Assembly: GCA_013287375.1 (NCBI GenBank)
Contig: JABDDX010000018.1
Coordinates: 1-36,009, forward strand
Reading direction: 5' to 3'
DNA from: Bacteroidota bacterium
Lineage (GTDB): Bacteria > Bacteroidota > Bacteroidia > Sphingobacteriales > Sphingobacteriaceae
DNA length: 36,009 nucleotides
Part shown: positions 33,591 to 36,009 of the stretch, in pieces
Layout: every line of letters starts with the position of its first letter
Position numbering within the stretch: the first letter of the stretch is position 1
Position numbers and translations under genes: made by a program
Notes under the pieces: model-generated
The model's input: only the letters and a program-made list of their open reading frames with translations
What the model was told of the DNA's origin: nothing
The model's database searches: none

Positions 33591-34937
33591 ATGGACAAAG
33601 TTTTAAGCCAGGAAAAGAGTTCGCCAATCGTGGTAGGGTTGGATATCGGAACTACAAAAATATGTGCCATTGTTGGCCGCCGAAGCAAAAACGGGAAGAT
33701 TGAAATACTGGGTATCGGAAAGGCTGAATCGGCGGGGGTAACGCGCGGAATGGTTTCAAATATTGACAAAACCGTGCAAGGTATCATCCAGGCAGTTGAC
33801 GTAGCGGGCACACAGTCAAACGTAGAGATACGCGTGGTAAATGTGGGTATAGCTGGTCAGCACATCAAAAGTTTACAGCACCGCGGGCTGATAACCCGTC
33901 GTGATTTAAACAGCGAAATCGGCCGCAAGGATATCGACAAGCTGATAGAGGATATGTACAACCTGGTAATGCCTCCAGGTGAAGAGATCATCCATGTATT
34001 GCCGCAGGAATTTACTGTTGACAGCGAACCGGGTGTAAAAGATCCTATAGGTATGGCTGGTGTGCGTTTGGAAGCAAACTTTCATATCATATCAGGCCAG
34101 GTTACTGCTATCAAAAATATTGTAAAGTGCGTAAATAAAGCAAACCTGGAAAGCCAGGAATTGATACTGGAGCCATTGGCGTCTTCTGAGTCGGTTTTGA
34201 GCGATGAGGAAAAAGAAGCAGGTGTTGTTTTGGTTGATGTTGGTGGCGGTACTACCGATGTGGCTATCTTCCACGAGGGGATCATCAGGCATACCGCTGT
34301 GATTCCTTTTGGTGGTAACAGTATTACCGAGGATATCCGCGAGGGCTGTTCAGTAATGCGTAACATCGCGGAACAATTAAAAGTGAGGTTTGGTTCTGCC
34401 CTGGCCGAAGAGAACAAAGAAAACGAGATTGTATGTGTACCCGGATTACGTGGGCGTGAGCCAAAAGAAATATCGGTTAAAAACCTGGCTTTTGTTATCC
34501 AGGCCCGTATGGAAGAGATCGTTGAGCATGTGTATTACGAGATCAAATCTTCGGGTTACGAGAAAAAACTGATAGCCGGTATAGTAATAACAGGCGGCGG
34601 CGCGCAGCTTAAACACCTGACGCAATTGGTAGAGTATGTTACAGGTTTAGATTGCCGTGTAGGATACCCTAATGAGCATTTGGCAAAAAATGAGGTGTTG
34701 CCAAAAAATATATACGAAGAGCTACAAAGCCCAATGTTTGCAACAGGTATAGGCCTGCTGATAAAAGGTATCCAGAAAATGGAATACAACGGACAAACGC
34801 AGGCTAGTACTGAGTTAAAAGTTGAAAAAACTAAAGTTCCTGAGGAAAGAAAAACAGGCGGTTTATTCGCCAAAATTCTGGAAGGAAGCAAAAAGTTTAT
34901 AAAGGATGATATAAAGGATGAAGACTTTTTAAAATAA
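33591..34937 (+). CDS. ftsA: FtsA, actin-like divisome protein
   Basis: A 448-residue actin-fold ATPase that anchors FtsZ to the inner membrane. Marks: VVGLDIGTTKICAIVGRR (phosphate 1, about 14-31), the SHS2/1C region (VNVGIAGQHIKSLQHRG), VVLVDVGGGTTDVAIF (phosphate 2) and GIVITGGGAQLKHL (adenosine motif). The C-terminal FAKILEGSKKFIKDDIKDEDFL (about 425-447) is the likely amphipathic membrane-targeting helix plus an acidic tail. ftsQ stops one base upstream. ftsZ follows after 172 bases containing DnaA-box-like sites. Confidence 0.96.
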   Translation: MDKVLSQEKSSPIVVGLDIGTTKICAIVGRRSKNGKIEILGIGKAESAGVTRGMVSNIDKTVQGIIQAVDVAGTQSNVEIRVVNVGIAGQHIKSLQHRGLITRRDLNSEIGRKDIDKLIEDMYNLVMPPGEEIIHVLPQEFTVDSEPGVKDPIGMAGVRLEANFHIISGQVTAIKNIVKCVNKANLESQELILEPLASSESVLSDEEKEAGVVLVDVGGGTTDVAIFHEGIIRHTAVIPFGGNSITEDIREGCSVMRNIAEQLKVRFGSALAEENKENEIVCVPGLRGREPKEISVKNLAFVIQARMEEIVEHVYYEIKSSGYEKKLIAGIVITGGGAQLKHLTQLVEYVTGLDCRVGYPNEHLAKNEVLPKNIYEELQSPMFATGIGLLIKGIQKMEYNGQTQASTELKVEKTKVPEERKTGGLFAKILEGSKKFIKDDIKDEDFLK

Positions 34938-34983: not shown

Positions 34984-35043
34984 TTATTCACATATAGTAA
35001 CTTTTCCACATTGTTAACGATTGTGGAAAAACCTTGTGGAAAA
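34984..35043. promoter_or_regulatory. Cluster of four DnaA-box-like 9-mers upstream of ftsZ
   Basis: TTATTCACA (34984-34992) fits the DnaA-box consensus TTATNCACA exactly. TTTTCCACA (35002-35010, plus) and its inverse TGTGGAAAA (35022-35030 and 35035-35043) differ from TTATCCACA by one base. The second and third form a palindrome centred on GTTAAC. An AT-rich stretch of about 65 bases separates the cluster from the ftsZ start. Binding by DnaA is inferred from sequence only. Confidence 0.6.
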
Positions 35044-35109
35044 AGTCATATTATTACATTAGTGAAATCTAATAATTCGTCAAAATAGATATAACTGAAA
35101 ATAAGGATT

Positions 35110-36009
35110 ATGCAGTTCGAGATGTTAAAAGAAAAGTCATCAATCATCAAAGTAATTGGTGTTGGCGGCGGCGGCGGTAACGCGGTAAACCATATGTACA
35201 AGCAAGGCATTACAGGTGTCGACTTTATTATCTGTAATACCGATGCGCAGGCTTTGGAGCTTAGCCCAATCCCAAACAAGGTACAATTAGGTGCTAGTCT
35301 AACCGAAGGTATGGGCGCAGGCTCAATTCCTGAAGTTGGTAAAAACTCGGCTATTGAAAATATTGACGATATAAAACAAATGCTGGGCTCTAATACCAAA
35401 ATGTTATTTATAACAGCAGGTATGGGTGGTGGTACAGGTACGGGTGCAAGCCCAATTATTGCCAAAGCAGCACGTGAGTTAGATATATTAACCGTTGGTA
35501 TCTTCACCACGCCGTTCTCATTTGAAGGCAAACGCCGTAAAATGCAGGCCGATGCGGGTATGGAAGAACTGAAAAAATATGTCGATTCATTCTTAGTAAT
35601 ATCAAACGACAGGCTTCGCCAGATATTTGGTAACCTTACTTTAGGATCAGCATTCGCGCAAGCAGATAATATTTTGACCACTGCAGCTAAAGGTATTGCT
35701 GAGATAATCACATTGCCGGGTTACATAAACGTTGACTTTAAAGACGTACGTACCGTTATGAAAGATAGCGGCGTATCTATAATGGGTAGCTCAACTGCCG
35801 AAGGCGAAAACCGTGCTCTGAAAGCTGTTGAGGGCGCTTTGTCATCGCCATTGCTAAAAGATAATGAGATAGAAGGCGCACGTTATATCTTGCTTAATAT
35901 CAGCTCTGGTACTACAGAAGTAACTATGGATGAAGTAAGTATAATTACCGATTACATACAGGAAGAAGCCGGTTTAGCCGCCGACCTGATATGGGGTAAT
36001 TGTGTTGAC
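35110..36009 (+). CDS. ftsZ: FtsZ, tubulin-like division GTPase (partial, 3' end off window)
   Basis: The first 300 codons from the ATG at 35110 run open to the window end. FtsZ polymerises with GTP into the ring that recruits the divisome. Visible: VIGVGGGGGNAVNHM (about 15-29), NTDAQAL, the tubulin signature G106-G-G-T-G-T-G112 (AGMGGGTGTGASP), the P-F-S-FEGK region, NDRLRQIFG and the T7 loop N207-V-D-F-K-D-V (usual NxDFxD for nucleotide hydrolysis). GGA lies three bases before the ATG. The C-terminal subdomain is incomplete, and the linker and FtsA-binding tail are outside the window. Confidence 0.97.
   Translation, partial: MQFEMLKEKSSIIKVIGVGGGGGNAVNHMYKQGITGVDFIICNTDAQALELSPIPNKVQLGASLTEGMGAGSIPEVGKNSAIENIDDIKQMLGSNTKMLFITAGMGGGTGTGASPIIAKAARELDILTVGIFTTPFSFEGKRRKMQADAGMEELKKYVDSFLVISNDRLRQIFGNLTLGSAFAQADNILTTAAKGIAEIITLPGYINVDFKDVRTVMKDSGVSIMGSSTAEGENRALKAVEGALSSPLLKDNEIEGARYILLNISSGTTEVTMDEVSIITDYIQEEAGLAADLIWGNCVD

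What the first reader, a model, noticed from the sequence alone, without database searches (positions are those of the whole stretch)
34984..35043. Four DnaA-box-like sites packed between ftsA and ftsZ
Four 9-mers in 60 bases, one exact TTATNCACA and three TTTTCCACA in two orientations, are far more than expected by chance in a 172-base gap. Two are arranged as a palindrome around GTTAAC. DnaA control of division genes is known in other bacteria (for example ftsZ in Caulobacter and ftsL in Bacillus). Here it would couple replication initiation to ftsZ in Bacteroidota. The following AT-rich stretch also leaves open an origin-like or DnaA-titrating site.
Basis: partly seen in the sequence, partly recalled or inferred. 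Interest (0 to 1): 0.66.

Follow-up and report, generated by a model that had tools for sequence, protein, structure and literature searches.

The report
Conserved DnaA-box array before ftsZ
In a family of mostly environmental bacteria, the gene for the cell-division protein FtsZ is preceded by a rigidly conserved cluster of sequences that look like binding sites for DnaA, the protein that starts DNA replication; this suggests, but does not prove, a link between starting replication and dividing.

Summary
The window is a Mucilaginibacter contig. Its four 9-mers in 60 bp are a cluster expected about 5e-6 times per genome. Among 78 relatives' ftsA-ftsZ gaps, 72 keep at least two strict boxes; box columns are 93% identical, spacers 58%. 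The positions that vary are those free in the DnaA box TTWTNCACA. GTTAAC is not a conserved palindrome; that stretch reads as a fifth, weak box (TTRTNNACA). A conserved TANNATTAC lies 5 bp after box 4. The head-to-head pair is found in 66 of 84 Sphingobacteriaceae genomes and 0 of 55 genomes of other Bacteroidia families: a family trait, not a phylum trait. In the one complete relative tested, ftsZ lies 1.29 Mb from the probable origin and GC skew does not change sign there, so it is not oriC. Best reading: a DnaA-binding control site of ftsZ's own promoter, direction unknown. DnaA binding and any effect on ftsZ are inferred, not shown. E. coli is a warning: its boxes upstream of ftsZ were reported to have no role. 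A titration or DARS-like role stays open.

The parts
33591..34937 (+). ftsA
   Evidence: ORF of 448 aa directly upstream of ftsZ at the end of the dcw cluster; name by recognition of the translated sequence, no family search run
34984..34992 (+). Box 1, TTATTCACA
   Evidence: strict TTWTNCACA in 57 of 78 relatives, variable at positions 3, 5 and 6
35002..35010 (+). Box 2, TTTTCCACA
   Evidence: strict in 63 of 78
35011..35019 (+). Weak fifth box-like element (TTGTTAACG here; TTRTNNACA in relatives), abutting box 2
   Evidence: conserved columns T2, T4, A7, C8, A9 in 79 aligned rows; p about 0.012 against the other spacer columns; the first base is missing in 20 of 79 rows
35022..35030 (-). Box 3, TTTTCCACA
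   Evidence: strict in 73 of 78
35035..35043 (-). Box 4, TTTTCCACA
   Evidence: strict in 40 of 78, TTTTCAACA in a further 30
35049..35057 (+). TATTATTAC, conserved TANNATTAC element, candidate core-promoter element of ftsZ
   Evidence: in 79 of 84 family genomes, 1 of 55 others; a box-like element ends 5 bp before it in 59 of those 79 and 4 bp before it in 3
35110..36009 (+). ftsZ, cut by the end of the contig
   Evidence: 300 aa, tblastn 100% to Mucilaginibacter sp. E4BP6

Best explanation
The ftsA-ftsZ gap carries a compact array of four DnaA boxes plus a weak fifth one (box 1, 2 and weak box reading forward, 3 and 4 reading backward), placed rigidly 5 bp upstream of a conserved TANNATTAC element. 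The most likely mechanism is that the replication initiator DnaA binds the array cooperatively and, from directly upstream of ftsZ's own promoter, changes ftsZ transcription with the level or nucleotide state of DnaA, so that FtsZ supply follows the replication cycle. Shown: sequence, clustering, conservation, fixed geometry, family restriction, a host DnaA with a canonical box-binding motif. Inferred: that DnaA is the protein that binds, that TANNATTAC belongs to a promoter, that transcription responds. Unknown: activation or repression. The boxes lie where a -33 element would be expected and no TTG stands at that spacing, which would fit either an activator that replaces -33 contacts or a repressor that blocks polymerase.
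For: Four boxes in 60 bp, expectation about 5e-6 per genome. In 78 relatives: >=2 strict boxes in 72, >=3 in 57, 4 in 30; 36 box columns 93.3% identical against 57.7% in 15 spacer columns; the four-box mask fits best unshifted among 79 shifts. The free positions follow the DnaA code: position 5 of box 1 takes all four bases, position 3 is A or T, the rest nearly fixed. Head-to-head pair in 66 of 84 family genomes, 17 of 22 genera. In 60 Mucilaginibacter genomes the strict pair occurs in 34, once each, and 33 of 34 places are at ftsZ. Box-to-TANNATTAC spacing nearly constant. Host DnaA (475 aa) aligns through the C-terminal domain with solved DnaA structures and keeps GGRDHSTV. Precedents seen as passages of review PMC8203912: Caulobacter ftsZ and B. 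subtilis ftsL promoters bind DnaA.
Against: No binding or expression data. Review passages report that three E. [quoted passage not shown] Boxes 3 and 4 are 4 bp apart; E. coli DnaA prefers 2 or 3 bp, and adding 1 bp to a 3-bp pair strongly cut binding (PMC11317965). The ftsZ boxes favour T at position 3, while the probable oriC favours TTATCCACA. Boxes are lost in some lineages with TANNATTAC kept (genus g3; Mucilaginibacter L076, L085), so they are not indispensable. TANNATTAC is not a general promoter element in G028: 24 of 696 upstream regions against 19 reversed, while TANNTTTG gives 153 against 66.
Confidence: 0.62

Rival explanations
1. The array is mainly a DnaA-handling site (titration, or DARS/datA-like change of the DnaA nucleotide state) that happens to sit in the ftsZ gap; any effect on ftsZ is secondary.
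For: Boxes 2, 3 and 4 have the orientation pattern of the E. coli DARS core, one box facing two tandem boxes: DARS1 read here as TTATCCACT-5 bp-TGTGGATAA-3 bp-TGTGTATTA; PMC5742627 passages state box I opposite to II and III. ftsZ lies 18.5-27.5% of the chromosome from nadA (probable oriC) in the 7 genomes with known contig length, a mid-arm place like the DARS sites.
Against: Spacers differ (11 and 4 bp against 5 and 3). The fixed spacing to TANNATTAC and to ftsZ in nearly all carriers points to the gene. Mid-arm location may just be inherited gene order; from rounded sizes G056, G113 and G126 fall at about 21-27% but G073 at about 44%. IHF/Fis sites were not looked for.
Confidence: 0.13
2. 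Another DNA-binding protein, not DnaA, reads TTTTCCACA here.
For: Preference for T at position 3 and the 4-bp tandem spacing differ from the probable oriC of the same genus, where 2-bp tandems occur.
Against: Free positions 3 and 5 match TTWTNCACA. Weak variants (position 6 A or G) resemble weak partner boxes listed for E. coli, such as TTGTAAACA and TTCCTGACA (Table 1 of PMC11317965). No candidate protein is known to me.
Confidence: 0.14
3. The inverted repeat is selected as an RNA hairpin (attenuator or terminator) in the ftsZ leader.
For: The gap RNA folds better than all 200 shuffles, z -3.1.
Against: Between boxes 2 and 3, changes mostly break pairs: 29 single and 3 double broken cells against 8 double changes that still pair and 5 G-U. 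No terminator-like site found. The boxes, not the pairing, are conserved; box 1 has no partner.
Confidence: 0.04
4. The site is a replication origin (oriC) or a second origin.
For: Box cluster followed by AT-rich DNA; TANNATTAC can be read as three DnaA-trio-like triplets (NTA NTA TTA).
Against: In G028 (one 5,357,928-bp contig) skew stays positive through 0.68-1.9 Mb and from 920 to 940 kb around ftsZ (0.036 to 0.134), the cumulative minimum is near 5.0-5.16 Mb and a box-bearing nadB-nadA gap lies at 4.997 Mb, 1.29 Mb away. The AT-rich side is the opposite one from the E. coli R1-DUE order (position of the DUE recalled). Three T-centred triplets occur in 597 of 2000 random 25-bp stretches of the window. 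Skew was tested in one genome only, from 20-kb samples.
Confidence: 0.02

Closest known systems
DnaA-regulated promoters of division genes (Caulobacter ftsZ; Bacillus subtilis ftsL), as told in review PMC8203912 (passages)
   Same: DnaA boxes directly upstream of a division gene, in Caulobacter the same gene ftsZ
   Different: Here a 4+1 box array with fixed mixed-orientation geometry, conserved in 17 of 22 genera of one family, absent from 55 sampled genomes of other Bacteroidia families; no binding data
DnaA boxes upstream of E. coli ftsZ (within ftsQA), same review
   Same: DnaA boxes upstream of ftsZ
   Different: E. coli boxes lie inside ftsQA coding DNA and were reported to play no role in ftsZ transcription; here they are intergenic, clustered and conserved
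E. coli DARS1/DARS2 core (PMC5742627 passages; DARS1 sequence read)
   Same: One box facing two tandem boxes; mid-arm chromosomal place
   Different: Spacers 11 and 4 bp against 5 and 3 in DARS1; extra box 1 and weak box; tied to ftsZ and TANNATTAC
Double DnaA box of E. coli (PMC11317965, abstract and Results section read)
   Same: Tandem strong plus weak boxes
   Different: Tandem spacing 4 bp here against 2-3 bp
Basal unwinding system, DnaA boxes plus DnaA-trios (PMC8287927, PMC6669920, PMC10721633: passages)
   Same: Tandem boxes, then about 4 bp, then three NTA-like triplets
   Different: Not at oriC; tandem gap 4 bp (program allows at most 3); only three triplets in AT-rich DNA; polarity opposite to E. 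coli R1-DUE, and reversing boxes 6/7 inactivated the B. subtilis origin

Membership tests
DnaA-box cluster | Several TTWTNCACA 9-mers closer than chance allows | tested here: met
DnaA-box cluster | Conserved in relatives with the degeneracy of the DnaA box | tested here: met
   within Sphingobacteriaceae; not outside it
DnaA-box cluster | Host DnaA with canonical domain IV | tested here: met
   GGRDHSTV kept, full-length alignment to DnaA structures
DnaA-box cluster | Bound by DnaA | not testable with these tools
   needs footprint or ChIP-seq
DnaA-regulated promoter | Boxes overlap or adjoin a mapped promoter | tested here: inconclusive
   TANNATTAC at fixed spacing, but it is not a general promoter element in G028; no start site mapped
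DnaA-regulated promoter | Transcription responds to DnaA | not testable with these tools
   needs reporter or dnaA depletion
oriC | At the GC-skew switch | tested here: not met
   one genome (G028)
DARS core | Three boxes, box I opposite to II and III | tested here: met
   boxes 2, 3, 4; definition
DARS core | Spacing of the E. coli core (5 and 3 bp in DARS1) | tested here: not met
   11 and 4 bp here; DARS1 read
DARS core | Stimulates ADP release from DnaA | not testable with these tools
   biochemistry
Basal unwinding system | Box, spacer of at most 16 bp, at least three DnaA-trios | tested here: inconclusive
   three T-centred triplets 4 bp after box 4, but such triplets are frequent by chance and the polarity looks reversed
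Rho-independent terminator / RNA hairpin | Stem kept by compensatory change, T tract | tested here: not met

The most novel reading that the evidence does not exclude
ftsZ in the Sphingobacteriaceae has a dedicated promoter without its own -33 element, in which the replication initiator DnaA, held on a rigid five-site array 5 bp from TANNATTAC, takes the place of -33 recognition (or even helps to open the TA-rich TANNATTAC), so that FtsZ synthesis depends directly on the DnaA cycle: a hard-wired replication-to-division switch at family level.
Probability: 0.15. Interest if true: 0.82.

Novelty: new variant of a known kind. Interest (0 to 1): 0.56.

Why it matters
Whether DnaA directly times cell division is an old and unsettled question; a review passage seen here says no bacterium has been shown to do so to a major extent (PMC8203912). 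A family-wide, base-by-base conserved array at ftsZ gives a concrete place to test it, with natural controls: lineages that lost the boxes but kept TANNATTAC. If DnaA does act here, the Sphingobacteriaceae become a model for replication-division coupling outside Proteobacteria and Firmicutes.

Tried and rejected
oriC at ftsZ: rejected by GC skew and distance in G028. Phylum-wide conservation: rejected. GTTAAC as a conserved palindrome: rejected. RNA hairpin: rejected. TANNATTAC as the general -7 of the genus: not supported. A -33 TTG at the usual distance from TANNATTAC: not found; TTG is frequent only at offsets 28, 15 and 12. BUS/DnaA-trio reading: weak.

Control that first looked bad: the reversed inverted-repeat pattern is about as frequent (32 places in 29 of 60 genomes) as the real one (34 places in 34 of 60). 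In the 29 control loci fetched, 0 lie before FtsZ and in 21 the stem goes on at least 2 bp into the spacer, as in terminators; in the 32 real-pair loci examined the stem goes on in 4. So that control is not neutral, and the argument rests on location: 33 of 34 real places are at ftsZ (32 seen in sequence; G032 by coordinates), 1 elsewhere (G050, L102).

Literature: searches listed no paper that by title or abstract start deals with DnaA boxes at ftsZ in Bacteroidota; only held open-access papers were searched and most listings were not opened. One search is the general DnaA-ftsZ search.

Full report
What was checked. The four 9-mers are present at the stated coordinates, in the 172-base gap between ftsA (33591-34937) and ftsZ (35110 to the window's end). 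The window is a whole contig (C18) of a 3.1-Mb, 188-contig, 58.5%-complete draft genome, and its FtsZ is 100% identical to that of Mucilaginibacter sp. E4BP6. The loose motif TTWTNCACA is ordinary in number (5 against 5.09 expected in the window; 294 against 309 reversed in the genome). TTWTCCACA is scarce (60 against 117 reversed). With these densities a cluster like this is expected about 5.5e-6 times per genome for the loose motif and 1.2e-5 for three tight boxes. In the list of 60 tight sites in the own draft genome the next closest pair is 48 bp apart (C14:28743 and 28791).

Conservation in the genus. A protein search of named genome contigs gave 80 ftsZ loci; two (L014, L058) end at a contig edge and were dropped, leaving 78 relatives. 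Strict TTWTNCACA boxes per gap: four in 30, three in 27, two in 15, one in 2, none in 4 (one of these four, L046, is N-masked). Box 1 is strict in 57, box 2 in 63, box 3 in 73, box 4 in 40, with box 4 reading TTTTCAACA in 30 more. Mean identity is 93.3% over the 36 box columns and 57.7% over 15 spacer columns; a mask of the four boxes fits best unshifted among 79 shifts (columns are not independent, so the p value of 2e-7 is only a guide). Box 1 shows which positions are free: position 5 takes all four bases, position 3 is A or T, position 6 is C or sometimes A, the rest are nearly fixed. That is the pattern of the DnaA box.

The middle. In relatives that centre is TTRTNNACA: T, T, A, C and A at positions 2, 4, 7, 8, 9 are 85-99% conserved, while positions 3, 5 and 6 vary; the first base is missing in 20 of 79 rows, where the spacer between boxes 2 and 3 is 10 instead of 11 bp. 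It reads as a weak fifth box abutting box 2. E. coli weak partner boxes such as TTCCTGACA (oriC) and TTGTAAACA (datA) are of this kind (Table 1 of PMC11317965, read).

A second element. TANNATTAC (TATTATTAC at 35049-35057) is kept at 97-99% per fixed base. In the family a box-like 9-mer ends 5 bp before it in 59 of the 79 genomes that have it and 4 bp before it in 3. It survives where boxes are gone (genus g3; Mucilaginibacter L076 and L085). It is not a general promoter element: 24 of 696 upstream regions in about 1 Mb of G028 against 19 for the reversed motif, while the usual Bacteroidota -7 (TANNTTTG, recalled) gives 153 against 66. No TTG stands at the usual -33 distance. I take it as part of the ftsZ promoter, but that is inference.

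Extent. ftsA-ftsZ gaps were taken from 84 Sphingobacteriaceae genomes in 22 genera (18 of them Mucilaginibacter, the own genome included; one genome of the hit lists, G126, was not fetched) and from 55 genomes of other Bacteroidia families (of 58; G149 and G189 were not fetched, G177 gave no readable FtsZ motif). A head-to-head pair, with one weak position allowed, is in 66 of 84 and 17 of 22 genera; at least two strict boxes in 67 of 84; TANNATTAC in 79 of 84. In the 55 others: no strict box, no pair, TANNATTAC in 1. Genera without the pair: g3, g5, g8, g9, g21. So this is a family trait with losses, not a phylum trait. Other families of the same order were not reached.

How special the locus is. 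In 60 Mucilaginibacter genomes the strict pair TTWTCCACA-N8..14-TGTGGAWAA occurs in 34, once each. Of the 34 places 33 are before ftsZ (29, G028, G015 and G023, G032 by coordinates) and one is elsewhere (G050). The reversed control pattern is as frequent (32 places, 29 genomes), which at first sight weakens this; but of 29 control loci none is before FtsZ and 21 have stems running on into the spacer, as terminators do. Site lists for two closed relatives, partly shown (the first 100 of 131 in G020, the first 50 of 166 in G034), have their only tight group at ftsZ.

Not an origin. In G028, one contig of 5.36 Mb, sampled as 20-kb stretches, the cumulative skew has its maximum near 2.3 Mb and its minimum near 5.0-5.16 Mb. 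ftsZ at 930,717 lies in a stretch of steadily positive skew. A divergent, AT-rich nadB-nadA gap with TTATCCACA-type boxes lies near the switch at 4.997 Mb, and its like is present in the own genome (C19). I take it as the probable oriC; one genome was tested by skew. Of the 12 nadA loci, L339 has no strict box there, so this assignment is not firm. dnaA in the own genome has no TTWTNCACA in the 3.3 kb around it.

Mechanism. The host DnaA (475 aa) keeps the C-terminal signature GGRDHSTV and aligns with solved DnaA structures. I infer cooperative DnaA binding to the array and control of ftsZ from directly upstream of its promoter. The sign is open. Against it: E. coli boxes upstream of ftsZ were reported to play no role (review PMC8203912, passages); the 4-bp tandem spacing is outside the 2-3 bp that E. 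coli DnaA prefers; the array favours TTTTCCACA where the probable oriC favours TTATCCACA; some lineages live without the boxes. A DARS-like reading has the right orientations but the wrong spacers. A BUS-like reading has too few triplets and the wrong polarity.

Verdict. New variant of a known kind.

Noticed in passing
L178:1960-2370 (G028:C1 about 4,996,960-4,997,370); own genome G000:C19:16350-16803: Divergent nadB-nadA gap with TTATCCACA-type boxes near the GC-skew switch: probable oriC of Mucilaginibacter, away from dnaA.
   Followed up: partly
L089 (G000:C69, dnaA): No TTWTNCACA in 3.3 kb around the own dnaA gene, so no sign of classical box-mediated dnaA autoregulation there.
   Followed up: no
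L200, L204 (genus g3 of the family): Boxes are gone but AACGTAATATTACGTT, a 16-bp perfect palindrome around TAATATTA, remains before ftsZ.
   Followed up: no
L350:1744-1800 (G000:C14:28743-28799): TTTTCCACA and TTATCCACA 48 bp apart, in the gap after a response-regulator-like ORF and before an ORF that starts MYTRLMLKLKYLTF and looks like a tetratricopeptide-repeat protein (names by eye).
   Followed up: partly
L352:1601-1627 (G050:C1:1507100-1507126): The only strict head-to-head pair that is not at ftsZ; spacer 9 bp; gene context not read.
   Followed up: no
G000 and four relatives: TTWTCCACA is less frequent than its reversed form in all five genomes listed (for example 60 against 117, 81 against 136), which may mean that stray DnaA boxes are avoided.
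   Followed up: no
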